The notes beneath the pieces are model-generated. The model worked only from the letters and a program-made list of their open reading frames with translations. It was not told where the DNA came from and made no database searches. The position numbers and the translations under genes are program-made. From a virus, in the IMG/VR virus record IMGVR_UViG_3300025138_000453, positions 1-21,301 of that record: 21,301 bases of DNA, one strand, 5' to 3'. Shown here piece by piece: positions 3,010-20,128 of the stretch (positions within the stretch are counted from its first letter, which is position 1; the number at the start of each line of letters is the position of its first letter).

Positions 3010-4494
3010 TTATACGTTATCTACAGCAAATTTTCTGTAGTAAACATTTGAATGAGGAGCTACTAATCCTTTTGATTGGATTGCTGCCGCACCAGCTGCA
3101 AATGGATTTGAAACCATTCCATATCGAGTTTTAAATCCGATTTTTGGTTGGAATGTCTCTTGAGCAACTGCTCTAACCATTTGTAATGGAACGTAAGGAC
3201 AATAGAACATACCTGCATCCATATTGTTTGTACCTTTATATCCAACAACGATGTAGTCACCTGATGTTGCATACGGGTCAATATAAACCTTAGTTCTATT
3301 ATTCAATGTACCAGCAAATACTCCAGATGTAACATCTACATCTAAGTTATCTTGGATACTTGATGAGTAGTCTAAAAGACCAGCCATAGTTAAGCCTGAA
3401 GCTACGTTAGCTGAACATAACATAAAGTTACCTTTACCTCTTCTAGTTTCAAAAGCAATATTATTACTTTCTTTTTCTATCTGAAGCATAAGACCTTTTT
3501 GTCTTTCAACTGACCATCTACCTTGACCATCTGCAATTAGATCAAATCTACCTGCATTTGTAAGTCCTGTAGCACCTCTTTTGGCTTGAGAAATGATAGT
3601 GTACACAACTTCTCTATTGATCTCAGCTAAGATTTCTGTAGATAAAATGTTGGACAATTCTGCCTCAGCATCTAATCCATGTACAGCTCTTAGATCTTGA
3701 ACCAATTCCATGGTGTATTCACTCTTAAGAGCTCTTGTCTTAGCTTCGACAGCAGTTCTTTCGATTGTGAATGACATTTCACGGAAGTTATCACCTTCAC
3801 CTTCTCTGGTAGTCATACCATAAGAAGAAGTACCTTCTGCAGCAACTTTAGCTGAACCGCCTGCTAATGCAGGGTTGGCGCCACTTGCTGTGCCAAAAGG
3901 ATTATTTACAGGTGTTACAGAATTATCTGTATATGTATCTGATTCTGCAGCAGTAGAACCAGAGTTGGCAGCTCTTGAAGGATTGAAAGGATTACCAGAG
4001 GTATCTTCGTTCGTTCCATCTTTATGAGTACCAGGAGCACCTGCATTGAAAGCAGTACCTGAGAAGTTAGGGAATACTTCATTGTAGAAAGCTTCTAAGC
4101 CTTCTTCACCAAGTCCATTAACTTCATTATTATTATTATATCTAGCACGTAAGGCAAAAATTAAGCCTGTTGGAGCTGACATTGCTTGCACACCACAAAG
4201 ATCAAAAGCCATCATTTGTGGCATTGCTCTTCTAACTAGTGATATGATAATCGGATCGTAACCTGCACGACCGGTTGCATTTATACTTGCATTATCGCCG
4301 GCACCTGAAAAGGCACCTCCGAAGGCTGCACCAGATACACTTGATTCCTGAATCTGAGTTTCTTCATGAAGAGCTTTCTCAGTATTCTCGAGAACTTGAG
4401 CTACAACGGCCTTTTTGTCTCGTTCTTTTATTTCAGGTAAATCGTCGTGATTAATTACTGGAGCCCATTTTTCTGTGAGAACATCAAAAGACAT
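3010..4494 (-). CDS. gp23: Major capsid protein (T4 gp23-like)
   Basis: This 494-residue protein builds the icosahedral head shell (HK97 fold in this family). Recognisable segments are TEKWAPVINHDDLPEI near the start and RAGYDPIIISLVRRAMPQMMAFDLCGVQAMSAPTG at about residues 78-112. A long flexible insertion rich in Asn, Thr, Ser and Gly follows (about 140-215), and the end reads YYRKFAVDNV. T4 gp23 is 521 residues, so the length is normal. IQE at residues 48-50 fits the gp21 cleavage consensus (hydrophobic-x-Glu) and would release an N-terminal propeptide, leaving a mature protein starting SSVSGAAFGG; this is inferred. The start is preceded by AAAGGAG. It follows gp21 and gp22 as in T4. A strong terminator follows it, as expected for the most abundant virion protein. 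Confidence 0.97.
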   Translation of the reverse strand: MSFDVLTEKWAPVINHDDLPEIKERDKKAVVAQVLENTEKALHEETQIQESSVSGAAFGGAFSGAGDNASINATGRAGYDPIIISLVRRAMPQMMAFDLCGVQAMSAPTGLIFALRARYNNNNEVNGLGEEGLEAFYNEVFPNFSGTAFNAGAPGTHKDGTNEDTSGNPFNPSRAANSGSTAAESDTYTDNSVTPVNNPFGTASGANPALAGGSAKVAAEGTSSYGMTTREGEGDNFREMSFTIERTAVEAKTRALKSEYTMELVQDLRAVHGLDAEAELSNILSTEILAEINREVVYTIISQAKRGATGLTNAGRFDLIADGQGRWSVERQKGLMLQIEKESNNIAFETRRGKGNFMLCSANVASGLTMAGLLDYSSSIQDNLDVDVTSGVFAGTLNNRTKVYIDPYATSGDYIVVGYKGTNNMDAGMFYCPYVPLQMVRAVAQETFQPKIGFKTRYGMVSNPFAAGAAAIQSKGLVAPHSNVYYRKFAVDNV

Positions 4495-4533
4495 ATCTCT
4501 TCTCCTTTATAAAAACGTTGATGTGATTTTTCT

Positions 4534-4541
4534 TATTCATA
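4534..4541 (-). promoter_or_regulatory. Possible late promoter of gp23 (one mismatch)
   Basis: TATGAATA on the minus strand, one base from the late octamer, in the gp22-gp23 gap and about 39 bases before the gp23 ATG. Position fits, but one mismatch in AT-rich DNA is weak evidence. Confidence 0.35.
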
Positions 4542-4558
4542 TTATATTTTTTTCTTAA

Positions 4559-6937: not shown

Positions 6938-6962
6938 TGGGTCCACTCCTTATAGTCTCTTT

Positions 6963-6970
6963 TATTTATA
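6963..6970 (-). promoter_or_regulatory. T4-type late promoter before gp22
   Basis: Exact TATAAATA on the minus strand in the 37-base gp21-gp22 gap, with AAGGAG about 10 bases downstream and the ATG at 6937. It would allow scaffold synthesis independent of the upstream unit. Confidence 0.75.
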
Positions 6971-6974
6971 ATTC

Positions 6975-7622
6975 TTAAAGATCTCTTAAAAATTTATTAA
7001 ATAGTTTAAGTTTAACTTCATTTATTTTGTTCTTTTCAGCCATCAAAAGTTCTTTTCTAGCTTGTGCTAAATCTTTTTGTACAAACAAACCAGACTCAAA
7101 TATCCATTCAGCTTGTTCATAAACACCTTCGACAAATGAAGATTGTGCAGAGGGATCAAAAACGATGTCTGCCGCAGTAGTTAAAACGAAATCATTTTGT
7201 ACTTCATTGTAACCTTCTCTTGTTGGTTTGAGAGATCCTAAACCTCTAGAACTTACTCCAACCGTAACACCATCTTTGACTAAACTTTCTACAATTTTAC
7301 CACATGGTGTAGATAATATTTTTGCTTTACCTTTATAATATATGTCATCCTTAACTAAAGACTCTGTCAATATAGCAGCTCTTTCAGGATTAACTGTAGG
7401 TTCAGCTGGGTGATTTAACTCACCTAAAGATCTTTTCTTATCGATATATTCTTCAGTATATTTTCTCACAGCTTCGTCCATAACCATCTGAGGATATACT
7501 CTTCCATTTCTGTTTTGTTTTTCAGCCTGTAAGAAAGGACCAGAAATATACATCTTCTTGTCTTTACCTTCAGTAATAACTGTTATATCTTCTAATAATG
7601 TTGGTTCAGCTATAAGTTTCAT
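6975..7622 (-). CDS. gp21: Prohead core protease (T4 gp21-like)
   Basis: This 215-residue protein is the maturation serine protease, which in this family cleaves scaffold and capsid proteins after hydrophobic-x-Glu sites inside the prohead. Visible motifs are SGPFLQAEKQNRNGRVYP (about 27-44), GELNHP with the probable catalytic His71, and VGVSSRGLGSL with the probable catalytic Ser124 or Ser125. Asp153 or Asp156 in TAADIVFDPSA may complete the active site. The length is close to T4 gp21 (212 residues). The start overlaps the upstream stop as ATGA, with AGAGGA before it. It is followed by gp22 and gp23, the T4 order. The enzyme probably auto-cleaves, but I did not assign a site. Confidence 0.95.
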   Translation of the reverse strand: MKLIAEPTLLEDITVITEGKDKKMYISGPFLQAEKQNRNGRVYPQMVMDEAVRKYTEEYIDKKRSLGELNHPAEPTVNPERAAILTESLVKDDIYYKGKAKILSTPCGKIVESLVKDGVTVGVSSRGLGSLKPTREGYNEVQNDFVLTTAADIVFDPSAQSSFVEGVYEQAEWIFESGLFVQKDLAQARKELLMAEKNKINEVKLKLFNKFLRDL

Positions 7623-7954
7623 CTGATTAAAAATCCTCTAAGTTCTACAACTGCATTAGGAGAAGTTCCAGCTACAGTTAAAATACCTTTTTCATTCAAT
7701 ACAGGTAGTCCTCCAAACTGAGACAACAACCAATTGCCTGATTCAAATGCTTTGCCATCTATAGTAATATCATTAGGTCCCATATTAATTACTGACTCAA
7801 TTCTACTAGCTTTAAAAACAGCAGTTTCATCTGTTTCTAAAGTAAATGTTAATGCATCAGAATCAACATTGGCAGCAGTATCTAAATGTAAAGTTACCCT
7901 GGCAGAGTTTTGATCTCTTGCAGTAATTCTTTTTGCTACTATTGTATTTGCCAT
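7619..7954 (-). CDS. Small beta-rich virion-type protein, unknown function
   Basis: This 111-residue protein starts MANTIVAKRITARDQNSARV, with alternating hydrophobic residues throughout. It includes FKASRIESVINMGPNDITID, a Gly/Leu-rich SGNWLLSQFGGLPVLNEKG, and the end VVELRGFLIR. This suggests an all-beta fold. It has AGGAGATGTGA before its ATG and overlaps gp21 by four bases, so the two are translated together. Small beta proteins in phage head operons are often decoration or head-surface proteins, which would fit but is not shown. It carries one DSD tripeptide like its structural neighbours. I do not recognise a family. Confidence 0.65.
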   Translation of the reverse strand: MANTIVAKRITARDQNSARVTLHLDTAANVDSDALTFTLETDETAVFKASRIESVINMGPNDITIDGKAFESGNWLLSQFGGLPVLNEKGILTVAGTSPNAVVELRGFLIR

Positions 7955-7963
7955 TCACATCTC

Positions 7964-8692
7964 CTAGTTAGACAAAGAAGCAAGACTTCTATTTCGTCCT
8001 TTAATTCTTTTTTTTGTTATCTTTGCAATCCTTGCAGCCTTTCTTTTAGCTGCAGATCCCATAGCTTTTTTGGCTCTTTTTAATTTAATGCCAAGTTTTT
8101 TCATTGATGCTTTTTGTGTTCCTGTTTGAGGTAGACATCTTCTTCCAGCAAGTCTCATACCAGGTCCACATTTTTTCTTTTTAATTATTTTACCTTTAGC
8201 TCTTCTAAAGATTACTTGTGCAGCACCTTCTGTTATAAATTCATTTCCATCTTTATCAAAATCAATATCTTCATAAACTTCATAGTCTTCAGCAAACAAT
8301 GCATCTTTCATAGCTATGTAGACTTTAATTCCATCATGGTAGCCTGTTCTATCTTCAATTCCATATTGAAGATCCATATCATCACCATCTTCCATAGGAA
8401 CAAAGTCTAAATAATATTCTGGACATTGACATTCGTCATCACTTTCATGTGATTCACATCCACAATCTTCTTCTTCATCCTGAACATTTAAACTATTCTC
8501 ATAATCTTCAACGTCATCTATATCTTCTTCAATATATTCAAAATAATTATTGATATTATTTTCTTCTTTAATGTCTTCAATTTCTTTATCAGTAAAAATA
8601 GAATTATCAACTGAAACATTACTGTTCAATTGTTCAATAACAATATTCTTTTGTTTTTCTACTATTCTGTCTTTAAGACTTTGTAGTTTCAT
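7964..8692 (-). CDS. Prohead-core-like protein with acidic N-half and basic Cys-containing tail
   Basis: I chose the ATG at 8692, six bases after AAAGGTG; an in-frame GTG at 8701 lies within that site. The protein has 242 residues. Residues about 35-110 are very acidic and hold CGCESHESDDECQC, a CxC...CxC cluster that could bind metal. An EF-hand-like loop DFDKDGNEFITE follows at about 144-155. The last 80 residues are strongly basic and start with KCGPGMRLAGRRCLPQTG, a signature I remember from marine T4-like head-region proteins. It lies between portal and protease genes, where T4 carries core genes 67 and 68. A role in the prohead core, or internal DNA binding by the tail, is inferred. The start lies inside the preceding gene. 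Confidence 0.7.
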   Translation of the reverse strand: MKLQSLKDRIVEKQKNIVIEQLNSNVSVDNSIFTDKEIEDIKEENNINNYFEYIEEDIDDVEDYENSLNVQDEEEDCGCESHESDDECQCPEYYLDFVPMEDGDDMDLQYGIEDRTGYHDGIKVYIAMKDALFAEDYEVYEDIDFDKDGNEFITEGAAQVIFRRAKGKIIKKKKCGPGMRLAGRRCLPQTGTQKASMKKLGIKLKRAKKAMGSAAKRKAARIAKITKKRIKGRNRSLASLSN

Positions 8693-8849
8693 CTTTTTCA
8701 CCTTTAATAAAATTAGTCGCTAATTCTTTTTTAATCATGTTTAATGCATTAAAAGTCTTAACGTCCAATTGATTCTTCACGTCATTAACAAATTGATCTT
8801 TATTATCAATGTTAGTTGTAAAGTCATTATTATCCATACTATTTATCAT
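8673..8849 (-). CDS. Small head-operon protein, gp67/68 position
   Basis: This is a 58-residue protein starting MINSMDNNDF if the ATG at 8849 is used; it overlaps the gp13 stop as ATGA. An ATG at 8837 (MDNNDFTT) and a GTG at 8855 are alternatives. None has an ideal ribosome site, although GGGG lies upstream of 8837. The sequence is hydrophilic and helical, with FVNDVKNQLDVKTFNALNMI and KKELATNFI. The pattern F-V-x-V-x-x-x-L followed by ALxxxKxExA resembles short proteins found between gp20 and gp21 in marine T4-like phages. A prohead core or capsid-assembly role is inferred from position. Its 3' end overlaps the next gene by 20 bases. Confidence 0.6.
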   Translation of the reverse strand: MINSMDNNDFTTNIDNKDQFVNDVKNQLDVKTFNALNMIKKELATNFIKGEKDETTKS

Positions 8850-9847
8850 CCCCACATTATAGAGTCTAGCTCTAATTGGTTATTGTTTCTAAGCTCTTCT
8901 CTCAAAGCTACTTCTTCATCTTTACCTTCGTTATATAATGTTTGTCCATCTAATTGAACACCACCTGGAAGTTCTGTGTTCATATATTTTTTAAGATTTG
9001 AACCCCATTGCATTTTTGCTAAAGATACTGAATACGATTTAAGCCAACTATCTGAATATACTTGTCCGTATATATCAGGATCAGTAACAACATAACATTC
9101 AGCTAAAAGATAGTGTGTTTTTTTACCTCCACTAGATACATTTTTAAGTCTTTGCATATCAACATCTAAGTATAATCTATTTTTATGTTTGTTAAATCTT
9201 ATAGCTGGTGAAGTATTCAAAAGAAATTCTATATGTTCAATAAAAGATTTTTGAATATAGTAAGATGTTAAACCACCTCCAGCCATACCTCCATAGAAAA
9301 AATCAAAGTTATTCAAAAAATATTGGTACTCATAATTATACATACCTGCTTGACTGAACGAATCTACCTTTGCAATTTTAGTAACTGCTATAATGTCGTT
9401 AGGAACTTTAACTCCTATCTTTCCACCATCAGTTAATGTTATATTCTGATCTTCTAAAATTTTTTCTTCAAGTGTAAATTTAGTTGAAAAACTTGCTTCA
9501 GAATCAAAAGCACCATCAGAATCTGTTTTGATATATACTCTAGCACCGGTTACATTATCTACTTTGTGCATAACTCTAGCACCTTTAATGTAAGTGCTTG
9601 AGTCAACGTAATCTTCAGCAGTCATTTCAAGATGTTTTCTAGAATTTCTTTCTAGAAATTTTTGATCAACTTTTATTAATCTGTATGTTCTTTCCGCACC
9701 GTCAAAATGATATTCCTGATATAACTGTACAGCATCGTCTATACAATCTTCCAATTGTATGTCTGCTATCTCAACGTTAATTACAGGAGCACCTAATTTT
9801 CTTAATATATAATCAGCTAATTCCTGTTTACTATTCGGTAACGGCAT
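8846..9847 (-). CDS. gp13: Neck (head completion) protein, T4 gp13-like
   Basis: This 333-residue protein belongs to the T4 gp13 family, which closes the filled head and joins it to the tail. The start, with LADYILRKLGAPVINVEI, then LEDCIDDAVQLYQEYHFDG, matches the gp13 N-terminus as I recall it. The end, LPGGVQLDGQTLYNEG followed by VALREEL, matches the gp13 C-terminus. T4 gp13 is 309 residues, so the length is near normal. GAGG precedes the ATG, and its first 17 bases overlap gp20. An exact TATAAATA lies 24 bases upstream, inside gp20. In T4, gene 13 sits with 14 and 15 rather than after 20, and no gp14 or gp15 is seen here. Confidence 0.88.
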   Translation of the reverse strand: MPLPNSKQELADYILRKLGAPVINVEIADIQLEDCIDDAVQLYQEYHFDGAERTYRLIKVDQKFLERNSRKHLEMTAEDYVDSSTYIKGARVMHKVDNVTGARVYIKTDSDGAFDSEASFSTKFTLEEKILEDQNITLTDGGKIGVKVPNDIIAVTKIAKVDSFSQAGMYNYEYQYFLNNFDFFYGGMAGGGLTSYYIQKSFIEHIEFLLNTSPAIRFNKHKNRLYLDVDMQRLKNVSSGGKKTHYLLAECYVVTDPDIYGQVYSDSWLKSYSVSLAKMQWGSNLKKYMNTELPGGVQLDGQTLYNEGKDEEVALREELRNNNQLELDSIMWG

Positions 9848-11450
9848 CTGAATCCTCTTCTATTATTGATGTATTTATATCTAAATCACTACTGTTTTCT
9901 GTAAGTGTAAATTGAGGTGATTTTTTATAGTCATCATACATATTGACAAAGTCATTGTTTGCAATATCAGCAGGAACATCTACATCTACTATTTGTTCTT
10001 TATCCATTTCATCCATAATTTGTTTGTCAATTCTTGCAATGTCCTCTTCAGTTTGACCTAGTATTTCTTTTCTTATATATTCTATAGAGAAATATTTACC
10101 GACATATTCAGACGCATCTCTTAACACATTCAATTGATCACCAAGTATTTCAATTCTTTTTAAATTCTCAAAGTGTGTATCTGATATATAATCATATGTT
10201 ATATATTGTCTCATCTCTTCAAATTCACCAGTGGTACAAACACCTTTCAATACTAATTGAACTCTTAAAACCTCATTGAATAACTCAGCAAATTGTTTTC
10301 TTATTCTATGAATGAATTTAGTAAATTTTAATTCGTCTCTACTAATATCTGAAGCTCTACCTAATTGAAAATTATTATCTTGATTGATTCTACTCATAGG
10401 AACATTAAGTGCTTGATATAATTTACCTTTAAAATATTCAACATCATCTAGATCACCTAAATTTTGTCCTCCTGGTAATGTAGTAATCTCAGTACCTTTT
10501 GATCCATCTCTTCTAGGTAACCAAAAATCTTCTAACATAGACATAAATTTTCTACTATCTCTTATAGATCCTGTCGATGGATCATAATCAATTTTGTTTC
10601 TATATCTATTCATCATGTCTTTTATATATTGTTCAGCTTTTATCTTAGGTAGCTGTCCAACATCAACATAAAAAATTCTTCTTTCAGGAGCTCTTGCAAT
10701 TCTATATACTATAAGAGCATCTTCCATTGATCTCAAATTGTTAAATGGTTTAATTGCTTTATCTAAATAACCTACAATTATACCTCTGTTTCTATCTAAT
10801 AAACCTGAAGGACAAAACACAACACTATCTTTTGATAATTTAGCTGAACTATTCATGTTCTTATCAGGCGCGTATTCAAACCACTCGTTTACTTTTGTTA
10901 GAACAGGAACACCAGATATTTTATCTTTTTGATATTCAGGCTTCACAACTCTTTTTATTTTAAGAGCATCTATAGGTCTTAGTTCAACAATACCTTCTTT
11001 AGGATTTTTTTTATCAATGATAACTTGAAAGTATAATCTTCCATCAATGTACCATTGTCTAAATAAGTCATAAGATTTTTTTTGAAATTTAAGATAATGA
11101 AGAACGTTTTTAAATTCTTTTCTCATTATCTTTTTTATTCTATCATCGATGTTTAAAGTATCAAGTCTTATTGAAACAGGAGCTCTCTCATGTTCAACAA
11201 CAAAAGCTTCGTTTACAACATCATCTATAGCAGCATCCGCTTCTGGATAAAAACTTACTGATCTATATTGTGAAATAAGTTGATGTTCGTTTCTATACTT
11301 CTTATCAAGTTCATATGTATAACCAATACGACCACCTACAGGTAGTTCAGTACCGTCATCCATTTCAACAGGTATAGGACTTACTTGTTTTTTTTCATTT
11401 TCTGGAGTGACTAAATCAAATCCAAAAAGATTAATAGTTTTTTCTGCCAT
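9831..11450 (-). CDS. gp20: Portal vertex protein (T4 gp20-like)
   Basis: This 539-residue protein forms the dodecameric portal through which DNA enters and leaves the head. It also starts prohead assembly. Family landmarks are QYRSVSFYPEADAAIDDVVNEA (about 61-82), FQKKSYDLFRQWYIDGRLYF (122-141), KEGIVELRPID, YRIARAPERRIFYVDVG (249-265), and FWLPRRDGSKGTEITTLPGG (about 311-330). T4 gp20 is 524 residues. GAGGAA precedes the start. It follows the gp19 gene by 48 bases and overlaps gp13 by 17 bases. The C-terminal tail is acidic and low in complexity, and its coding sequence contains a late promoter octamer for gp13. Confidence 0.98.
   Translation of the reverse strand: MAEKTINLFGFDLVTPENEKKQVSPIPVEMDDGTELPVGGRIGYTYELDKKYRNEHQLISQYRSVSFYPEADAAIDDVVNEAFVVEHERAPVSIRLDTLNIDDRIKKIMRKEFKNVLHYLKFQKKSYDLFRQWYIDGRLYFQVIIDKKNPKEGIVELRPIDALKIKRVVKPEYQKDKISGVPVLTKVNEWFEYAPDKNMNSSAKLSKDSVVFCPSGLLDRNRGIIVGYLDKAIKPFNNLRSMEDALIVYRIARAPERRIFYVDVGQLPKIKAEQYIKDMMNRYRNKIDYDPSTGSIRDSRKFMSMLEDFWLPRRDGSKGTEITTLPGGQNLGDLDDVEYFKGKLYQALNVPMSRINQDNNFQLGRASDISRDELKFTKFIHRIRKQFAELFNEVLRVQLVLKGVCTTGEFEEMRQYITYDYISDTHFENLKRIEILGDQLNVLRDASEYVGKYFSIEYIRKEILGQTEEDIARIDKQIMDEMDKEQIVDVDVPADIANNDFVNMYDDYKKSPQFTLTENSSDLDINTSIIEEDSDAVTE
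9872..9879 (-). promoter_or_regulatory. Late promoter inside gp20 end, before gp13
   Basis: Exact TATAAATA on the minus strand, 24 bases before the gp13 ATG, with GAGG between. It lies within codons for the gp20 tail (DINTSI region), so chance is possible in AT-rich code, but spacing matches the other boxes. Confidence 0.6.
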
Positions 11451-11498
11451 TCTGCTTCCTCATAATATTAACTAGCTACTATATATGTTATAGGAGAT

Positions 11499-12059
11499 TT
11501 ATCCTACATTGTCCGTAGTATTACTAGTCCAATATTGATACGCGATAGTACAGCTGAATTCTTCGATAGTATCTGTAGCGTCAAATGACATATCGATAGG
11601 ATCAACTTGTACAGGAAAGCAGCCTCTGAACGTATAGGTTTTTTGTACCTTATTATTTTTGTCCAATTGTTCTACTCTCCAGTCTTGTATATAAGCCTGA
11701 ATGTTAGTACCAAGTGAAGTTGTACCACCTACGTGTTGGTTGATTTGATTCATCCAAGATTCAAAAGCATTTCTAATTGCAAAGTTGTTATCATTCATAA
11801 TTGTGATAGTCCAATCTTCAAATATTCTATCACCTGCAACTTTCAATTGTCTACCTCTAAAAGGAACTGGAATTTCACCAATTGTTGATGGAGGTAGTTG
11901 AGCTCCTTTTATTAAAAAAGAACCCAGTTGTACTAATCCTAAACCTGTATTATCTGTAGATGTAACTGTACCTGGAAATCCTGGTATTACTCTAAAATAA
12001 TTTGGTCTTGCTCCACCACCTATAAGTGCTGCTTTAAAGTCGTCAATTCTTAAGGTCAT
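11499..12059 (-). CDS. gp19: Tail tube protein (T4 gp19-like)
   Basis: This 186-residue protein forms the hexameric rings of the inner tail tube. Matching T4 gp19 are GGARPNYFRV near the start, then GEIPVPFRGRQLKVAGDRIFEDWTITIMNDNNFAIRNAFESWM (about 62-104) and TYTFRGCFPVQVDPIDMSFD. The end, TIEEFSCTIAYQYW, also matches. The protein is slightly longer than T4's 163 residues. It starts one base after the gp18 stop, with AGGAG in the last gp18 codons, so sheath and tube are co-translated. A 48-base gap before gp20 carries no clear promoter or terminator. Confidence 0.96.
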   Translation of the reverse strand: MTLRIDDFKAALIGGGARPNYFRVIPGFPGTVTSTDNTGLGLVQLGSFLIKGAQLPPSTIGEIPVPFRGRQLKVAGDRIFEDWTITIMNDNNFAIRNAFESWMNQINQHVGGTTSLGTNIQAYIQDWRVEQLDKNNKVQKTYTFRGCFPVQVDPIDMSFDATDTIEEFSCTIAYQYWTSNTTDNVG

Positions 12060-12060
12060 A

Positions 12061-14250
12061 TTAAGCTCCTGCTACTTCTTCAAAACTTACTCCAGTACGT
12101 ACTGCTACAAAGTTAAGAGTAATAAAATTAATTGATCGATTTGGTTTAATGTATATATCTGCTACAAATCTATTTCCATCAATCACTGCTGGTGTGTTAT
12201 TAGTAGTATCACAAACAACTTTAAAATCTTGCATACCTCTTCTTGCTTTAATATCTTGTAAGAAAGGTTCTATGGCTGCTGTAAAATTTGCTCTTGTAAA
12301 ATCATCATTGAATTCAAACAATTGAAATTTAGCTGCTGTAGATATAGCTTTTTCTAAAACTATAAAAAGTCTTCTTACATTTATTCTATCAAAAGATGAA
12401 GGCCTAGACAACGCAGTTTTATCTCCGAATAATAATGTTCCTTGACCTCTAACAGTCACAACTGGATTAACTCTCTCTCTATACAAAGCATCTCTATCTG
12501 CTTGTTGAGGATTGTAAGATAATTTTGTAACATTTGAAACAAAACCTCTATTAAAACCAGCTGGAGACCACCATGCATCGTTTGTATATTCAGATCTTGC
12601 TGTTATTCCAGCAGTGTCACCTGCCATAGGAGCCCAAAAATATTCATCATTGTATCTATCATACATTCTTTTCCATGCAGAATCGAATACTGTATATGAA
12701 TTACTATTGAAGTCTGCAAAATAATCGGTAACTTTTTTTGCTGTAGGATTAATTACAGCTGAATCATATGAAGGTGAACAAAATACTATACAATCTTTTC
12801 TTACTTTAGCTAAATTGTCTATAGCATATTTTTGTACAGTTTTTTGTTTAGTTGCATTACCAGATCCTGAACCAAAATGATTACCTATGATTAAAGATAT
12901 ATCAATCTCTTCAGCATCTTTAAATTTATCTAAAGCTCCTGTATAATCTGCAGCGTCAATATCGTCACCTGATGATCCACCATTTAAATTATATCTTCTT
13001 ACACCTGCTATCAATGCATTTGATACAAATCTTACAAAGTCTTTTTGATTATTTTTATATATACTTGTACCTATTGCAGTCGTCTGATCACTATTAGTAA
13101 GAGCTGTTACTGCAGATCCATTAGCTTGATCTTCAGTTAAAAGATATATCCAATTACTAGTATTGTTAACTACAGTCTTATAAAAATTCTGTCCTCCATC
13201 TGCAGTAACACCGTTACCAGCTTTTGAAAGTGCTTCATGAATTTCTAAAACTTCGAATGCATTTCCAGTAATTGTTGTATCAGTTGTATGTACAATGATA
13301 TGAACTTCATCATTTACATCTGAGTCAAAAGTGTCTGTTGACCATTGTGACTTACCAGGTTTCTTATCAAAAAATACACCTGCTTTTATTGTTCCATTAG
13401 CTACTAAAGAAGTATTTAAAAAATCACTATCACTTATCGTAGCATCAATTAATATAACTCCAATTCCATTTCCTCTTGCACCTGGAAATCTAGCATAAAC
13501 AGAACCATTAGTTAGGGTTGTTTCTTCAGATATAAAATCATCTAAATTATTAAGAACAGCAGCAGTTCCAAAACCTGCACCTTGTTCTAGTTCTTCTATT
13601 GGTATAAAAGATAAACCTATTGTTGTGACTGCTGAAGGATCTGTACCTGCAGGAGTTGTAAATGTTACTGTAGCATCATTTCCTAATGAACTAGATCCAT
13701 CTGAATCAACCGAAGCATCGACAGCGTTTCCTTCTACGTTTATAGCATTTTTAATTATATTAGCAATGTCACCTGAATTACTTATATTGTCTGAATCTGT
13801 AACTCTAAATGTTAAAGCACTACCACTTGTAACTGCTCCTATTGTAACAGTTTGAGTTTTGTGTCCCTCACCATCTGAGTCTGGAAAAGTCAATACTGGA
13901 GTACCAGTAATTGTTATTGTTGTTTTTCCTGCTTCCAATGTTACAAATTCTGAAGCAGCATTTCTTGCTCCATCAGTTAGTATTCTACAAACTTGTATTG
14001 CATTTGCATATGAAAGAAAATTTGCTGCTGAGTACCAATCTGTTCTGTTGCTTTCTCCAGCAACTGTTGATACAATTGGGTTACCAAAAATAGAAACTAA
14101 CTGTTCTTCTGAACTTATTAACGTTGGTTCTAAACATGGACCCCATTCAAAATTACCTGCTATAGCTCCTGTAGAGGTTGCTACTGCTGGTATTATATTC
14201 GTTAGATCTTTTTCTTGGACCTGTACACCTGGGCTAACTTGGAACGCCAT
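12061..14250 (-). CDS. gp18: Contractile tail sheath protein (T4 gp18-like)
   Basis: This 729-residue protein forms the contractile outer sheath of the tail. The N-terminus, FQVSPGVQVQEKDL then STGAIAGNFEWGP and LVSIFGNP, is the sheath signature. The C-terminal half has VNPVVTVRGQGTLLFGDKTA, FDRINVRRLFIVLEKAI and the closing FITLNFVAVRTGVSFEEV, the conserved polymerising core. T4 gp18 is 659 residues. The excess lies mainly in residues about 95-240, a Thr/Ser/Asp-rich beta segment with several DSD tripeptides, probably a surface domain. AAAAGGAG precedes the ATG, and a late promoter and two small palindromes lie in the leader. gp19 follows after one base. Confidence 0.97.
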   Translation of the reverse strand: MAFQVSPGVQVQEKDLTNIIPAVATSTGAIAGNFEWGPCLEPTLISSEEQLVSIFGNPIVSTVAGESNRTDWYSAANFLSYANAIQVCRILTDGARNAASEFVTLEAGKTTITITGTPVLTFPDSDGEGHKTQTVTIGAVTSGSALTFRVTDSDNISNSGDIANIIKNAINVEGNAVDASVDSDGSSSLGNDATVTFTTPAGTDPSAVTTIGLSFIPIEELEQGAGFGTAAVLNNLDDFISEETTLTNGSVYARFPGARGNGIGVILIDATISDSDFLNTSLVANGTIKAGVFFDKKPGKSQWSTDTFDSDVNDEVHIIVHTTDTTITGNAFEVLEIHEALSKAGNGVTADGGQNFYKTVVNNTSNWIYLLTEDQANGSAVTALTNSDQTTAIGTSIYKNNQKDFVRFVSNALIAGVRRYNLNGGSSGDDIDAADYTGALDKFKDAEEIDISLIIGNHFGSGSGNATKQKTVQKYAIDNLAKVRKDCIVFCSPSYDSAVINPTAKKVTDYFADFNSNSYTVFDSAWKRMYDRYNDEYFWAPMAGDTAGITARSEYTNDAWWSPAGFNRGFVSNVTKLSYNPQQADRDALYRERVNPVVTVRGQGTLLFGDKTALSRPSSFDRINVRRLFIVLEKAISTAAKFQLFEFNDDFTRANFTAAIEPFLQDIKARRGMQDFKVVCDTTNNTPAVIDGNRFVADIYIKPNRSINFITLNFVAVRTGVSFEEVAGA

Positions 14251-14263
14251 CTATCGACTCCTT

Positions 14264-14289
14264 TTTGTAATTACAAAGATAATTTATCT
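14264..14289. repeat. Two adjacent small palindromes in the gp18 leader
   Basis: TTTGTAATTACAAA is a perfect 14-base palindrome (14264-14277). AGATAATTTATCT (14277-14289) is a near-perfect one beside it. Both lie between the late promoter and the gp18 Shine-Dalgarno site, so they could form mRNA hairpins near the ribosome site. They are short and could be chance. Confidence 0.45.
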
Positions 14290-14293
14290 GTTA

Positions 14294-14301
14294 TATTTAT
14301 A
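14294..14301 (-). promoter_or_regulatory. T4-type late promoter before gp18
   Basis: Exact TATAAATA on the minus strand in the 62-base gap before gp18, 43 bases upstream of its ATG. It probably drives gp18, gp19 and gp20. Confidence 0.75.
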
Positions 14302-14312
14302 TTATTAAAATT

Positions 14313-15911
14313 CTACGATGAAGGAACTGTGTTAACAAAACTAGCATTATCACTACTATTTGTTACAGCAACTGTCAAAGTATAACCTAATATACTATAT
14401 TTTTCTTTGAATGCGTATTCAATTTTATTACCATTCCTTAATGCGAAAACTTCCCAATATCTATTTGCAACAGGATGGTCTATTATATTTATATATAATA
14501 TTTGTAGTACATTTGCATCAGTCATACCTTTAGCAAACAATACGTTATTAATTGTAACTGTAGCACCATCACCAGCAACGACTCTCCATGTTACAGTTAT
14601 GTTATTTTCTAGAACATTGTCACTGTCCGTTGAGAATTGTACTATACCAAGTGTTTCAGAATCAGTTGGTATAGGAGTAGCATCTGGCTGTGATGGTGTA
14701 ACACCAACTGCTGCCTCTAATATATTCATTCTTCTATTTAAATCTTGAATAACTATAGTATCTGAATCTCTATCAGACATTAAACTAATTACTTTAGTAT
14801 TTAAATTAGTAATTTCTGAATCAAAAGAATCTACTTCATTTCTCAATGTAGCCATTACTGTAAGATCTGAATCGCCTATTCCTTGTACACTAGCTATTTT
14901 ATTTTGAAATAAAGTATAATCTGAATCTATTAAAAGTTTTAATTCATTTTGTTTTGTTTTTAATAATTGTATTGTAGTTGTATCTGAATCTCTATCTAAT
15001 TTTAAATTGTCTACTTCATTTCTCAATGTAGCCATTACTGTAAGATCAGAATCATCTATACCTTTAACATTTGATAATTTTATTTGAAATAATGCATAAT
15101 CAGAATCAATTGCAACTTTTAAATCTGATTGTTTACTTTTTAAATTTTGTATAAATGTTGTATCTGAATCAACATCTAATCTTAAACTATCAACATCATT
15201 TCTCAATTGAGCTGATGCTGCTAAATCTGAATCACCTATACCTACTATACTAGCTATTTTCAATTGAAAAGCTAAATGATCTGAATCTGTATCAATTCTC
15301 AATTGATCAATTTCTTTTGTATGTCTAGCAACTGTGGCTTGATCAGATTCGTTCATTGCATTAGGAACAAACTCGTCTAATCCTAATGGTCCTACATATC
15401 TTGCTCCACTTATATAAACTGACTTACCACTGAAGCTTACTCCGTTAGGTAAATTCTCTCCCATGAAATGTAATACACCAGACGAATAATCAAAAAACCA
15501 TTCATCATTATTACCTGAACCAGAAGCAAAAACTTGTTTACTTATATTTGCAGCACTATCGCTATCATTAGAAGTATGAATGTAAACTTTTACTTGGTAC
15601 GTTGCTCCAAATTCTGGATTAATCCAATTAGTTAATCCTGTTAACCATGTACGATTAGTAGAAGCAGTACCATCATTTGTTGTTTCAATTAAATTATTAG
15701 ATCCATATACTTCTACTATACTATTGTTGGAAGCAGGAATAGCTATAGGAATAGCACCAGCTTTATTCCAAGTTAAATCACCTCTTATAACTAACGGTGA
15801 TGGTATTGATTCGTTAGTAGCTCCTTTTAGACTATCAGAGTCAGTTCTAGTAACATTAAAACCTAATTTTTTAAATAGAAAATCGACTTTTGATTTTAAA
15901 CTAATAGCCAT
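14313..15911 (-). CDS. Fibre-like structural protein with 60-residue DSD coiled-coil repeats
   Basis: This 532-residue protein has three parts. The N-terminal domain (about 30-180) includes TWLTGLTNWINPEFGATYQVKVYI, DEWFFDYSSGVLHFMGENLP and ISGARYVGPLG, a module I recall from marine phage structural proteins. Residues about 195-395 are coiled coil punctuated by DSD. Within it, a unit beginning LRNEVDxxxxDxDSD, then IDSDYxLFQ, then GIxDSDLTVMAT repeats every 60 residues. The C-terminal part (about 410-532) is beta-rich and may be a tip or attachment domain. There are 12 exact DSD tripeptides. The start overlaps the PKD-protein stop as TAATG with only a weak Shine-Dalgarno, so translation is coupled. 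A tail fibre, or fibre connector, made with the PKD protein is likely. No catalytic motif is seen. Confidence 0.72.
   Translation of the reverse strand: MAISLKSKVDFLFKKLGFNVTRTDSDSLKGATNESIPSPLVIRGDLTWNKAGAIPIAIPASNNSIVEVYGSNNLIETTNDGTASTNRTWLTGLTNWINPEFGATYQVKVYIHTSNDSDSAANISKQVFASGSGNNDEWFFDYSSGVLHFMGENLPNGVSFSGKSVYISGARYVGPLGLDEFVPNAMNESDQATVARHTKEIDQLRIDTDSDHLAFQLKIASIVGIGDSDLAASAQLRNDVDSLRLDVDSDTTFIQNLKSKQSDLKVAIDSDYALFQIKLSNVKGIDDSDLTVMATLRNEVDNLKLDRDSDTTTIQLLKTKQNELKLLIDSDYTLFQNKIASVQGIGDSDLTVMATLRNEVDSFDSEITNLNTKVISLMSDRDSDTIVIQDLNRRMNILEAAVGVTPSQPDATPIPTDSETLGIVQFSTDSDNVLENNITVTWRVVAGDGATVTINNVLFAKGMTDANVLQILYINIIDHPVANRYWEVFALRNGNKIEYAFKEKYSILGYTLTVAVTNSSDNASFVNTVPSS
14830..15250 (-). 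repeat. Tandem 180-base repeat inside fibre-like gene
   Basis: A 38-base stretch at 14830-14867 recurs identically at 15010-15047, exactly 180 bases away. A diverged copy begins near 15191, again 180 bases on. The unit encodes 60 residues of DSD-punctuated coiled coil. Near-identity of the first two copies suggests recent duplication or gene conversion. Confidence 0.85.
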
Positions 15912-18900
15912 TAACTTATACTCAAACTAGTTACTGTATCGTTAGCTGCTAAAGCTATTCTCAATAATACAACATTACTATCTGCATTAGTTGAGTTCTG
16001 TGTTCCTAAAGTAAATTTAAAAGATCCATTTAATGATCCACTACCAATAACATCTGCTCCTGTAGATGCACAACCATCTGAACCATTACCACCATTTCCC
16101 GTATCACTTCCAGGCACACCTGCACCTGCATATTGAACTCCACAATTTAACCAACCGTTTATGCCTGAAGTATTATCAATTGTTGTACCAGGAGCAGCTA
16201 TAAACATTCCTTCTATACCGGTAGTAGAAACTATACTTAATGTAAAGTTAGCCATAGCAGCTCTTCTAAATGCTAGTGTAAAATACTGAGTTCCTGTATC
16301 ACCAGATCTGTTCGGACCAGGTGGAATATATGTAGAATAATTTAGTACATCATGTTTTAATAATCCAAGTCTAACTGTAGATTCTTTTGTTCCAGCTATA
16401 CCAGGATCAGCACTTTCTGAAAAAATTTCTGTTGTGTAGTAATTAAAACTTGAACCTCTTAAAGATGGCGTATTAGTTGTTTCAGATTTAAAAGCTGCTG
16501 ACCTTACTGCATTATCTGTAAATGTTGAACCTAAACTATTAGATACTTGTATAGAATTTTCATTAATTCCAGATTGAGAAGCTGTATGTACATTTATATT
16601 TGTTGTATTTTCAATATACGAACTTGTACCATTAACATTTCTTGCTCTTATTTTTATTCTATCTACAGTTCTTACTGATGAAGAAGTTATAGGTACAGAT
16701 AATGTTCCTATTGCATAAGCAGAACCTACACCCACATTAGCTATAGGTATTCCAGATGATAACATAGTAGTTGATCCATCAATATTTGCATAGCTATAAT
16801 CAGTATTAACTGTACCAGACGAAGATGTACTTTCTTGATTAGTTCCAGTATCTATTTCTACTACGTTTGAAACATCGCAGTATGCTTCTCCTGTTAAATT
16901 AGTTATTGTAATACCAGCAACATTTATTGTTGGTGATCCTGAATTGAAATAAGGTATACCAGATATATATCTAAAAGTTCCAGCATTATTTACTGTTAAT
17001 GTTCCTGCATTTGTAACTACAGGTGAAGATGTAAGACTATCTCTTAATATATGAACAAAATTAGTACTTCCAGTTATAGCATGTACTAATTTTTGAGCAT
17101 TTAAACCAGTAGAATAATCACTTTCTGATCTAGATATTTTTGCATCAAATGTTTGATAAAAACCAGTTGGATATATTGATGAAGAAATAGTAACATGAGC
17201 ATCATTTTGTTGCGTTATAACTAGTGTATCAAAAGTACCAGTTTCATTTACAATACCAAAATTGAAATGTTTAATACCTTTTACTACATTATTAATTGAA
17301 CTAGCTAAATTACCAAAAGCTCCATTCAATGCATTGTTTATAGTATTTGTTTCAACTGTACCAGATATATATCTTCTAGCAGTTGTTGTATTTAAACTAT
17401 CTCCTGCATTTAAAGTAGTAAACGAACTTGTTTGATCTCTAAAACCTGAAACTAGTTTTGGATTATTACCCTGTGCTGGACTAGCAAATGTTAAACTAAA
17501 CGAAGATAAATCGTTTGGAGCAGCTGGAGGATCTGATAAAGTAAATGTCAATTGTTCATTATCGGTTTGTGACTCACCACCTGGTGATCCATTTCCTGTT
17601 AAGGTAATTGTATAACTTTGAGTATTTGCTCCTAGATAATTATGATTAAGTGTATGCCCTATTGATCCAGGTGTTGAACCATCTTCTGCTATATTATCAT
17701 TACTTCCATGTGACCAACTATAAACGTAACTACTAGCATTTTGAGATGTGTTTGTTGCTGTTACTAAAGCTCTATTTTTACTATTATAGTCAGTAAAATT
17801 ATATAAACTATATTGATTATCGCCATCTTTATCTGAAACAGTATCAGCTGTAGCTGCTAAATTAACTCTTAGATCTGGTTTCACTGTAATTTTAAATTGT
17901 TCTGAGCTAAATGGTGACGAAGAGTGATTTGATACTACTCTCAATTCACCTGTATAAGTTACTGTATTTCCATTGGCTTGATCAGAACTTGAAAGTGCAT
18001 ATGTATGAGACAATGGACTTGCACTTCTATCTCCAGCAGAGCCTGAACCAACATTAACTGTAGTATTAGAAGTTCCATCTCCCCAAACATATACATATTG
18101 ATTGCCAAATATACTATGATTACCTATACCAGACCCGCTATTATTTGTTGCTTGTATAACATGACCGGAGGTTGCTTCTTCATTTATACCATCACTATCA
18201 TTTATACTTACAGATGGAGTATGAGTGTCTAAAATATTAAAAAGATTATCTGAGTCCGCTATAGGAAGATCAGCTGGATTAGCTGTCGTGTGTGTGTTTA
18301 AAGTTAATGAAATGTTAAAAGATCGATCAGTATCAGTAACTGAATCAAAAGTATAAGGTAACCTTGAACCTCCATTGTTTACAGAGCCACCTGCTTGTCC
18401 ATCGTTACTAACATAATAGACTCCATCACTATCTCCAAAATTCCAATTGTATGTAGCAGTGGAATTAGAAGTATTAGTTGTGTTGTTTTGTAGATAAACA
18501 GTTGCACCATCATCCCAGTTTGTAATAGGAGAACCTCCAGAAGAAGCTGAGTATATAGCAAAGCTAACTACAGGTGTAGCAGTATACACAATAACATAAT
18601 TAGATCTTTCTTTTATTGAAAATGAACCTGCACCTTCACCAGAATTATTTCTCGCTACAACTTTTACAGTAAAAGGAGAACCACTGTTACTATTATATGT
18701 ATGGGAAGGTGTACTATCAGAACTGTCAGAGTCTACTGTACCATCACCCCAATATATATCATATCTATTAGGTGTACCATCTGCTGATGTAGTAAGAGTT
18801 GTAGTAAACCCAGCTCCACCTACTAAATTATCACCATTAAAATCTAGGTTAGCTACAGCAGTATTTTTTAGAATGTTTCTTGAAGCTTCGTTTAATCTAT

Positions 18901-19225
18901 CTATAGCATCGGCAACAGTATTGTTAGTTTGTAATGAAATAATTCCAGGTTCAATTGTAAACGAACCATCACTAGGTGAGTTGAGAGTAACATTATCTCC
19001 TGATATATCTGACGAGGCAGCATGCTCTCTTATCATATTAAAGACAATATCTGAATCAACTATAGCAGGATTTTCTTGAAGTACACTTTTTACAAAGTCT
19101 GAATCAATATTAGAATGTATTTTATATACACCTTCGCCTTCAGAATTAACTGAAAAATTTACTGTTGTACTATTTCCGGATTCAATCCTTGTGACTAAAG
19201 GAATGTTCTCAGAGTCATATGCCAT
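15911..19225 (-). CDS. Large PKD-domain structural/adhesion protein
   Basis: This 1104-residue protein is probably a tail fibre or head-tail appendage. After an N-terminal region with two DSD motifs and a short helix (ADAIDRLNEASRNIL) come several PKD-like beta domains. Each has a WGDGT or similar turn and an SHTY strand: YDIYWGDGTVDSD with SHTY (about 160-180), YNWNFGDSDG, YVYVWGDGTS with SHTYA, and YVYSWSHGS with LNHNYL. The C-terminal domain has GTQYFTLAFRRA, GMFIAAPGTTIDN, GWLNCGVQYAGAGVPG, and a Gly-rich GGNGSDGC segment, which I remember as a repeated ending in marine T4-like phage fibres, possibly receptor-binding. AGAGG precedes the ATG, with a late promoter just upstream. The next gene overlaps its stop. 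PKD domains are known in cell-surface adhesion; binding a host glycan is inference. Confidence 0.8.
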   Translation of the reverse strand: MAYDSENIPLVTRIESGNSTTVNFSVNSEGEGVYKIHSNIDSDFVKSVLQENPAIVDSDIVFNMIREHAASSDISGDNVTLNSPSDGSFTIEPGIISLQTNNTVADAIDRLNEASRNILKNTAVANLDFNGDNLVGGAGFTTTLTTSADGTPNRYDIYWGDGTVDSDSSDSTPSHTYNSNSGSPFTVKVVARNNSGEGAGSFSIKERSNYVIVYTATPVVSFAIYSASSGGSPITNWDDGATVYLQNNTTNTSNSTATYNWNFGDSDGVYYVSNDGQAGGSVNNGGSRLPYTFDSVTDTDRSFNISLTLNTHTTANPADLPIADSDNLFNILDTHTPSVSINDSDGINEEATSGHVIQATNNSGSGIGNHSIFGNQYVYVWGDGTSNTTVNVGSGSAGDRSASPLSHTYALSSSDQANGNTVTYTGELRVVSNHSSSPFSSEQFKITVKPDLRVNLAATADTVSDKDGDNQYSLYNFTDYNSKNRALVTATNTSQNASSYVYSWSHGSNDNIAEDGSTPGSIGHTLNHNYLGANTQSYTITLTGNGSPGGESQTDNEQLTFTLSDPPAAPNDLSSFSLTFASPAQGNNPKLVSGFRDQTSSFTTLNAGDSLNTTTARRYISGTVETNTINNALNGAFGNLASSINNVVKGIKHFNFGIVNETGTFDTLVITQQNDAHVTISSSIYPTGFYQTFDAKISRSESDYSTGLNAQKLVHAITGSTNFVHILRDSLTSSPVVTNAGTLTVNNAGTFRYISGIPYFNSGSPTINVAGITITNLTGEAYCDVSNVVEIDTGTNQESTSSSGTVNTDYSYANIDGSTTMLSSGIPIANVGVGSAYAIGTLSVPITSSSVRTVDRIKIRARNVNGTSSYIENTTNINVHTASQSGINENSIQVSNSLGSTFTDNAVRSAAFKSETTNTPSLRGSSFNYYTTEIFSESADPGIAGTKESTVRLGLLKHDVLNYSTYIPPGPNRSGDTGTQYFTLAFRRAAMANFTLSIVSTTGIEGMFIAAPGTTIDNTSGINGWLNCGVQYAGAGVPGSDTGNGGNGSDGCASTGADVIGSGSLNGSFKFTLGTQNSTNADSNVVLLRIALAANDTVTSLSIS

Positions 19226-19248
19226 TATAAAATACCTCTTTTACTTAT

Positions 19249-19256
19249 TATTTATA
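19249..19256 (-). promoter_or_regulatory. T4-type late promoter before the PKD-domain gene
   Basis: Exact TATAAATA on the minus strand, 23 bases before the ATG at 19225, right after the hairpin at 19264-19299. The same hairpin-then-box layout occurs at 2952-2991. Confidence 0.75.
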
Positions 19257-19263
19257 AGTTGAT

Positions 19264-19299
19264 AAAATATTAGATACCATTTATGATACCTAATATTTT
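19264..19299 (-). terminator. Hairpin terminator after the DSD fibre gene
   Basis: Two 17-base arms separated by two bases pair fully on the minus-strand RNA if two G-U pairs are allowed. The same arms have A-C mismatches on the plus strand, so the minus strand is the better hairpin. It lies 20 bases after the stop at 19319. It is AT-rich and the following U tract is short, so strength is uncertain. Confidence 0.6.
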
Positions 19300-19318
19300 T
19301 AATCAATTAAGAGATAAT

Positions 19319-20128
19319 TTAAGAAGACTTAACTAAACTTACTACTGTTAAATCGTTACTTACAGCCGCAGGTTCTGTTAACACTACACTTGTTCCATTT
19401 GAAGCGGTATAGTCAGAAGATTCTAATCTAATACCGTTTAAAAATACCATAATTTGGTTAACAGTGTATCCTAATGTTGCTGAATTATTATCGTTTCCTG
19501 AAAAAGTAGTCTGTCCTGCTGTTGCTGTATATTCAAAGAAAGTAAATGTATTTCTCAATCCTTGGATTATAGCTTCATCTGAATCTAATCTTACGTGAGC
19601 AGCATCTGCTCTAGCTTTAGCAACAGCTACAGCTGTATCTAAAGATTGTAATTTTGATTCATCTGAATCTAATCTTGTTTTCATTCCATCGATTTGTGTT
19701 TGAACATTTTGTAATGCTATGGAATCTGAATCTAAATTAGTAATTGCAGATGAAATTTTTGCAGTTAATTGACTTATGATTAAATCTGAGTCAGCTAAAT
19801 TAACTAAACCAGCTGCAATAATACTTCTAGTATTTTCATGCTCAGAATCTAATCTTGATTTTACTTCTGTTATATCTGCATTTGTAGCTGTTATCTCAGC
19901 TGTTAAATTTGTTCTTAATGTTTGAATAACTGTACTATCTGAGTCAAGATCTGCTCTTAAACTAGCTGTGTTACCACCTAAGCTATTACCCAATGATTGT
20001 ATTTTTGCGTCATCAGAATCCAATCTACCTTTTATAAGTGCTATTGTATTAGCTAAGTCTGAGTCAACACCAGTTACTACAACTGATTGTCCTACTATTA
20101 ATTTGGCTAGTTCTCTACCTCTACTCAT
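19319..20128 (-). CDS. Tail fibre protein with DSD-punctuated coiled coil
   Basis: This 269-residue protein starts MSRGRELAKLIVGQ. Residues about 20-195 are a long coiled coil in which LDSD or a close variant recurs about every 20-30 residues, usually followed by I-Q-x-L. The last 70 residues, from FEYTATAGQTTFSGND through LGYTVNQIMVFLNGIRLESSDYTASNGTSVVL, are a beta domain common at the C-terminus of phage tail fibres. Seven exact DSD tripeptides are present. A late promoter lies 31 bases upstream, AAGGG serves as ribosome site, and a hairpin follows the stop, so this may be a single-gene unit. A trimeric fibre or fibre-associated protein is likely. The acidic triplets may mark ion-binding or register points in the coil, which is speculation. 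Confidence 0.8.
   Translation of the reverse strand: MSRGRELAKLIVGQSVVVTGVDSDLANTIALIKGRLDSDDAKIQSLGNSLGGNTASLRADLDSDSTVIQTLRTNLTAEITATNADITEVKSRLDSEHENTRSIIAAGLVNLADSDLIISQLTAKISSAITNLDSDSIALQNVQTQIDGMKTRLDSDESKLQSLDTAVAVAKARADAAHVRLDSDEAIIQGLRNTFTFFEYTATAGQTTFSGNDNNSATLGYTVNQIMVFLNGIRLESSDYTASNGTSVVLTEPAAVSNDLTVVSLVKSS

What the first reader, a model, noticed from the sequence alone, without database searches (positions are those of the whole stretch)
7619..20128. DSD tripeptide code across structural proteins
Exact DSD occurs about 12 times in the 14313-15911 protein, 7 times in the 19319-20128 fibre, about 6 times in the PKD protein and about 5 times in gp18, and also in gp13 and the 111-residue protein. 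In coiled coils it marks repeat boundaries, usually as LDSD. It is mostly encoded by near-identical nine-base words (GATTCAGAT type), so the repeat exists at DNA level too. It may bind cations, set coil register, or be a recombination seed among fibre genes.
Basis: partly seen in the sequence, partly recalled or inferred. Interest (0 to 1): 0.6.

Follow-up and report, generated by a model that had tools for sequence, protein, structure and literature searches.

The report
Asp-Ser-Asp tag covers phage tails
An uncultured group of marine T4-like viruses of bacteria carries the three-residue word Asp-Ser-Asp (or Asp-Ser-Glu) roughly 15-20 times more often than chance in the outer proteins of its tails and nowhere else, which looks like the address label of an enzyme that modifies the serine, probably with a sugar, rather than a fold, metal or DNA-recombination signal.

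Summary
DSD occurs 33 times in the window and is by far the most enriched tripeptide of its four long tail/fibre proteins (30 vs 1.6 expected; z 19, next z 4.6). Kin contigs (up to 152 kb) show the same: 136 vs 6.3 expected in 15 tail proteins of one contig, 11 vs 11.6 in its other 172 proteins. The word is D-S-[D/E]: Ser is not exchanged for Thr, nor the first Asp for Glu. Orthologous sites keep DSD (1036) or become DSE (133); DTD is rare (12). About 85% of distinct sites lie outside coiled coils, without flanking consensus. Synonymous codons vary, including AGY Ser codons (18%), so selection acts on protein. A sister clade uses D-S-A. Three marine T4-like control records show no excess. Best reading: a three-residue modification sequon on outer tail proteins, most likely for Ser O-glycosylation (S. 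aureus SdgB acts on bare DSD; Bacteroidota use D-[S/T]-x). A GT-A glycosyltransferase/methyltransferase-like cassette lies beside the tail genes in most such contigs, but the link has exceptions. No modification has been observed.

The parts
19319..20128 (-). 269-aa coiled-coil fibre; DSD at residues 22,37,62,113,133,154,182 (window 20057-20065, 20012-20020, 19937-19945, 19784-19792, 19724-19732, 19661-19669, 19577-19585) and one DSE site at 94; C-terminal ~70 aa is a domain common in marine phage tail fibres
14313..15911 (-). 532-aa tail protein (N-terminal 180 aa = phrog_9417 family) with a coiled coil of 60-aa repeats (21+21+18); DSD at 24,116,209,227,248,269,287,308,329,347,382,429
15911..19225 (-). 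1104-aa PKD-like/beta-rich tail protein; DSD at 41,57,165,265,324,343
12061..14250 (-). tail sheath gp18; DSD at 124,152,182,274,309, all inside residues 101-421, the stretch that phmmer does not align to T4 gp18 (aligned 5-100 and 422-728)
8846..9847 (-). neck protein gp13; one DSD (9515-9523); orthologues in kin have 1-3
7619..7954 (-). 111-aa protein between gp21 and the 245-aa ORF; one DSD (7856-7864), also present in kin
3010..7622 (-). negative control inside the window: gp23, gp22, gp21 with no DSD
14829..15243 (-). 180-bp tandem repeat in the 532-aa gene; the place where identical DSD words come from DNA duplication

Best explanation
D-S-[D/E] is a short recognition sequon on the outer proteins of the tail (neck, sheath insert, peripheral baseplate, fibres). 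An enzyme made by the phage or its host recognises Asp-Ser-acidic irrespective of fold and modifies the serine; O-glycosylation is the most likely chemistry. Shown: enrichment, strict D-S-[D/E] rule, tail restriction, site conservation, protein-level origin, a D-S-A variant in a sister clade. Inferred: that the serine is modified at all, that the modification is a glycan, and which enzyme does it. The candidate is a cassette of up to three GT-A glycosyltransferase-like proteins plus a methyltransferase-like protein beside the tail genes.
For: Pooled tail proteins: D-S-D 82 vs 4.2 (G001), 82 vs 6.0 (G002), 50 vs 2.7 (G007), 71 vs 4.0 (L006); D-S-E is the only other strongly raised D-S-x; DTD 1 vs 3.8, 1 vs 4.9, 1 vs 2.5, 1 vs 3.6; E-S-D not raised. 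G008: 136 vs 6.3 in 15 rich proteins, 11 vs 11.6 in 172 others. Inner baseplate, hub, tube and capsid families average about 0 per protein, outer baseplate and fibre families 3-21. In orthologue alignments DSD residues are 74% identical, flanks 51%, other Ser 47%, other Asp 64%; fates DSD 1036, DSE 133, gap 127, DTD 12. No flanking consensus at 524 non-coil contexts. The sister clade has D-S-A 92 vs 8.4 with Thr not accepted (D-T-A 5 vs 9.8). SdgB O-GlcNAcylates bare DSD (PMC8561734); Bacteroidota modify D-[S/T]-x (PMC12871550). Cassette: GT-A fold by Foldseek (LARGE1, LgtC; E down to 1e-9), invariant D103/D105; present in 6 of 7 DSD and 3 of 3 DSA contigs compared, absent from the three control records in the regions read and, for the one GT queried, from 50,697 phage records.
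Against: No modification has been measured. G015 is DSD-rich (122 sites in 11 proteins) yet has no cassette between its gp15 and terminase genes; G016 and G020 carry the cassette but show no D-S enrichment. No GT4 family (PF00534) or GT2 (PF00535) domain was found. The rest of each proteome is at chance, not depleted, which a promiscuous cytoplasmic enzyme might have caused. The window itself contains none of the candidate enzymes.
Confidence: 0.5

Rival explanations
1. Non-covalent recognition label: DSD is a repeated docking peptide read by a tail-assembly chaperone, a host surface component or a lectin-like partner, with no chemical modification.
For: The same strict, context-free three-residue rule and tail-only distribution fit a binding motif too; no enzyme is tied to it without exceptions.
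Against: Up to 36 copies per protein and more than 130 per genome seem excessive for docking; Ser over Thr at nearly every site is more typical of an enzyme or a very tight pocket.
Confidence: 0.17
2. Physicochemical or structural motif: an acidic polar triplet that binds Ca2+/Mg2+ or sets coiled-coil register and turns.
For: In 92 coil-like contexts the Ser prefers heptad position c, putting an Asp at core position d; the fibre is predicted as one long helix through its DSD sites; sea water is rich in divalent cations (general knowledge).
Confidence: 0.15
3. Spread of DSD-bearing modules by duplication and domain shuffling within one lineage, without function of its own.
For: Fibre paralogues share DSD coils (eight tandem genes in G002); the 532-aa gene has a 180-bp tandem repeat; indels between fibre orthologues fall at LDSD unit boundaries.
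Confidence: 0.08
4. DNA-level word: GATTCAGAT acts as a recombination seed, a methylation site (GANTC) or another DNA signal.
For: GAYTCN contains GANTC; TCA is somewhat over-used in DSD codons (49% vs 39%).
Against: Only frame 0 is enriched (385 vs 5-18 elsewhere); word frequency outside the tandem repeat equals the codon expectation, and the longest words shared between window genes never include DSD.
Confidence: 0.02

Closest known systems
SdgA/SdgB O-GlcNAcylation of serine-aspartate repeats, Staphylococcus aureus (PMC8561734, PMC3794999)
   Same: Serine between two aspartates; DSD alone is a sufficient substrate for SdgB; acts on surface-exposed proteins.
   Different: There the sites form long (SD)n tracts in cell-wall adhesins; here single DSD/DSE words are scattered over many folded virion proteins. 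No PF00534 domain found in the phage contigs.
Bacteroidota general protein O-glycosylation, D-[S/T]-[A/I/L/V/M/T] (PMC8550257, PMC12871550)
   Same: A three-residue motif with a nearly obligatory Asp before the modified residue and a species-dependent third residue; glycan made by a locus of glycosyltransferases.
Virion glycosylation in mycobacteriophages (Freeman et al. 2023, as cited in PMC12619734)
   Same: Phage virion structural proteins carry glycans.
   Different: Known for C-termini of capsid and tail-tube subunits; here capsid and tube lack the motif and the outer tail carries it.
T4-like cyanophages and pelagimyophages (S-RIM2, HTVC008M) and the single-cell virus AG-345-E02
   Same: Same T4-like core structural genes.
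   Different: DSD, DSE and DSA at about or below expectation in the regions read; no member of the cassette families there.
Polar core layers in trimeric coiled coils
   Same: In coil sites an Asp recurs at a core position.
   Different: Concerns only about 15% of sites and does not explain the strict Ser.

Membership tests
Enzyme-recognised sequon (general) | Strict residue rule at the modified position | tested here: met
   Ser only; Thr depleted; first Asp not replaced by Glu
Enzyme-recognised sequon (general) | Independence of fold and flanks | tested here: met
   524 non-coil contexts without consensus
Enzyme-recognised sequon (general) | Covalent modification at the site | not testable with these tools
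   needs mass spectrometry
SdgA/SdgB SD-repeat glycosylation | DSD acceptor | tested here: met
   DSD present; SdgB acceptor from PMC8561734
SdgA/SdgB SD-repeat glycosylation | Long (SD)n dipeptide tracts | tested here: not met
   isolated words; the window proteins have one SDSD
SdgA/SdgB SD-repeat glycosylation | SdgB-type GT-B glycosyltransferase in the genome | tested here: inconclusive
   PF00534 absent from 8 contigs, but these are fragments and the enzyme could be the host's
Bacteroidota D-[S/T]-x O-glycosylation | Thr accepted as well as Ser | tested here: not met
   DTD depleted; D-T-A 5 vs 9.8
Bacteroidota D-[S/T]-x O-glycosylation | Hydrophobic third residue | tested here: not met
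   D/E in this clade; A, D, S, N, G in the sister clade
Phage virion glycosylation | Phage-encoded glycosyltransferase near structural genes | tested here: inconclusive
   GT-A cassette in 6 of 7 DSD contigs compared, absent at its usual place in G015, present without the motif in G016/G020
GT-A glycosyltransferase (cassette proteins) | GT-A fold and DxD motif | tested here: met
   model pLDDT 84; Foldseek to LARGE1, LgtC, alpha-3GalT, UGGT; D103/D105 invariant
T4-like myovirus | gp18, gp20, gp23 homologues | tested here: met
   Portal_T4 2.6e-165, Gp23 2.4e-132, sheath domains

The most novel reading that the evidence does not exclude
A whole phage lineage decorates the exterior of its tail with glycans at a fold-independent three-residue sequon, D-S-[D/E], and a sister lineage has retuned the same D-S core to D-S-A; it would be sequon-directed glycosylation of virions and a further O-glycosylation sequon beside that of Bacteroidota.
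Probability: 0.35. Interest if true: 0.87.

Novelty: new variant of a known kind. Interest (0 to 1): 0.68.

Why it matters
A 2025 review calls Bacteroidota the only known exception to the rule that bacterial O-glycosylation lacks a defined sequence motif (PMC12871550). A phage lineage with more than a hundred copies of a three-residue rule, confined to outer tail proteins and with a sister lineage using a changed third residue, makes motif-specific virion modification directly testable by mass spectrometry and gives a natural experiment on how such specificity evolves. Heavy tail modification would also bear on adsorption and shielding of marine phages.

Tried and rejected
DNA word/recombination seed: rejected. 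Cation site as the general cause: rejected on the Ser-only rule and the D-S-A clade. Coil register as the general cause: rejected, 85% non-coil. Kinase: a RIO1-like protein occurs in only 2 of 8 contigs. Classical GT4 and GT2 domains: none. Host genomes carrying the GT: none found in GTDB contigs. Asp beta-hydroxylase/2OG oxygenases: PF05118 in 7 of 10 contigs, and a further HxD..H..R family in 6 of 7 DSD and all 3 DSA contigs compared but not in G016/G020 or controls; kept as a weaker alternative (Asp hydroxylation), since 2OG oxygenases are also annotated in cultured marine phages. The [YH]AN[ST] excess in G016 looks like a longer coil repeat, not a sequon. No paper on a DSD motif in phage tails turned up in the open library searched. 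tRNAs as a hint to the host: none found.

Full report
What the window is. The 21.3-kb window is a fragment of an uncultured T4-like phage held in IMG/VR: portal gp20, major capsid gp23, sheath gp18, neck gp13, and a 532-aa, an 1104-aa PKD-like and a 269-aa coiled-coil tail protein. The best cultured gp23 relatives are about 50% identical. Close kin exist only as contigs: G001 (69.5 kb), G002 (35 kb), G007 (51 kb), and, found through gp15 and gp23, G008 (152 kb), G009 (109 kb), G010-G013 and G015.

Check of the observation. The counts are as stated. DSD is the single outlier among all tripeptides in the four long tail genes: 30 against 1.64 expected, z 19, the next at z 4.6. Capsid, scaffold, protease and tube genes have none. 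Two details need correction: LDSD is typical only of the 269-aa fibre, and the DNA words are no more alike than codon usage predicts once the 532-aa gene with its 180-bp tandem repeat is set aside.

It is lineage-wide and confined to the tail. In G008, 15 proteins with three or more DSD hold 136 sites (6.3 expected) and the other 172 proteins hold 11 (11.6 expected); G001, G002, G007, G009, G011, G012, G013 and G015 look the same. That split is by DSD count, so its informative half is that everything else is at chance. Splitting G001, G002 and G007 by gene position instead gives 82, 82 and 50 in the tail genes (4.2, 6.0 and 2.7 expected) and 6, 3 and 9 elsewhere (5.2, 1.3 and 4.2 expected; the remainder includes gp13 and the 111-aa type protein). 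Rich proteins are sheath, neck, gp15, peripheral baseplate and fibre proteins; families of the inner baseplate, hub, tube and capsid average about zero. In gp15 of G001 seven DSD lie in the last ~80 residues, beyond the part matched by most T4-like relatives. In gp18 all five lie in residues 101-421, which phmmer does not align to T4 gp18; in T4 that stretch holds the peripheral domains (own knowledge, not tested). Two cultured T4-like phages, S-RIM2 and HTVC008M, and the single-cell virus AG-345-E02 show no excess in the regions read.

The rule. In pooled tail proteins D-S-D is raised about 14- to 20-fold and D-S-E several-fold; no other D-S-x, x-S-D or D-x-D is raised comparably; DTD is depleted and ESD is near chance. 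Across orthologues DSD residues are 74% identical against 51% in flanks; a DSD is conserved (1036), becomes DSE (133) or is lost with a gap (127), while DTD appears 12 times. These pairwise counts are not independent events. There is no flanking consensus at 524 distinct non-coil contexts; in 92 coil-like contexts the serine prefers heptad position c, the second Asp then at d. The fibre model is one helix (residues 3-194) running through the DSD sites, so DSD is not a helix break there, though the model rests on three sequences and its pTM is 0.36. Ser codons in DSD include 18% AGY (25% elsewhere), which is evidence for repeated independent origin at protein level.

A second dialect. So the D-S core is kept and the third residue changes between clades.

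Candidate machinery. Beside the tail genes most DSD and DSA contigs encode up to three related proteins with an invariant D-x-D pair; one was modelled (pLDDT 84) and matches GT-A glycosyltransferases such as LARGE1 and LgtC. With them goes a Rossmann-type protein that looks like a methyltransferase by motif only; the PDB profile search gave only weak support. These families occur in 6 of 7 DSD and 3 of 3 DSA contigs compared and not in the control records; the one GT queried has no tblastn match in 50,697 phage records and none in GTDB contigs. Exceptions matter: G015 is DSD-rich without the cassette at its usual position, and G016 and G020 have the cassette without D-S enrichment. A 2OG-oxygenase-like family with HxD..H..R is another correlate. 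G013, the seventh DSD contig, ends before the usual place of the cassette. Contigs are fragments, so absence is weak evidence.

Interpretation. A context-free three-residue rule with an obligatory hydroxyl residue, conserved site by site, restricted to outer tail proteins and retuned in a sister clade has the signature of an enzyme sequon. Two known systems show that such rules exist: SdgB glycosylates a bare DSD peptide (PMC8561734), and Bacteroidota glycosylate D-[S/T]-x with a nearly obligatory Asp (PMC12871550, PMC8550257). I therefore propose serine O-glycosylation of the tail surface as most likely, at about even odds for a covalent modification by a sequon-reading enzyme, and lower for this particular cassette. 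Cation binding, coil register and recombination are not adequate general causes.

Limits. No modified residue has been seen; the host is unknown; expected counts come from residue composition per protein; the coil classifier is a simple composition rule; the contigs are fragments and several kin are close relatives of one another.

Noticed in passing
L295, L298, L303, L305 (contigs of L295, L303, L305 = G017, G018, G021): Sister T4-like contigs use D-S-A (then D, S, N, G) instead of D-S-D in their tail proteins, 94 vs 9.7 expected in G017.
   Followed up: yes
L294 / contig G016: [YH]AN and AN[ST] strongly over-represented (YAN 71 vs 7.7, ANT 82 vs 16) in 13-20 ORFs; same GT/methyltransferase-like cassette but no D-S enrichment; looks like a coil repeat.
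   Followed up: partly
L165:4863-20000 (contig G001): Island between the gp15 module and the terminase/sheath genes with eight proteins matching Radical_SAM (one just below cut-off, three with SPASM), a QueC-like protein, an FeS assembly protein and a RIO-like kinase.
   Followed up: partly
L169 (contig G002:236-15780): Eight tandem paralogous fibre genes sharing a DSD coil at the N-terminus with long variable C-termini; the window's 19319-20128 fibre resembles a short form.
   Followed up: partly
window 20247-21299: FG-GAP repeat protein cut by the contig end, without DSD in the part present; probably the C-terminal part of a fibre like those of G002.
   Followed up: no
L263:876-1457 and relatives: 2OG-Fe(II) oxygenase-like family (HxD..H..R) present in 6 of 7 DSD and all 3 DSA contigs compared and absent from G016/G020 and controls at the threshold used.
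   Followed up: partly
window 14829-15243: 180-bp tandem repeat coding 60-aa coiled-coil units (21+21+18 residues) in the 532-aa gene.
   Followed up: partly
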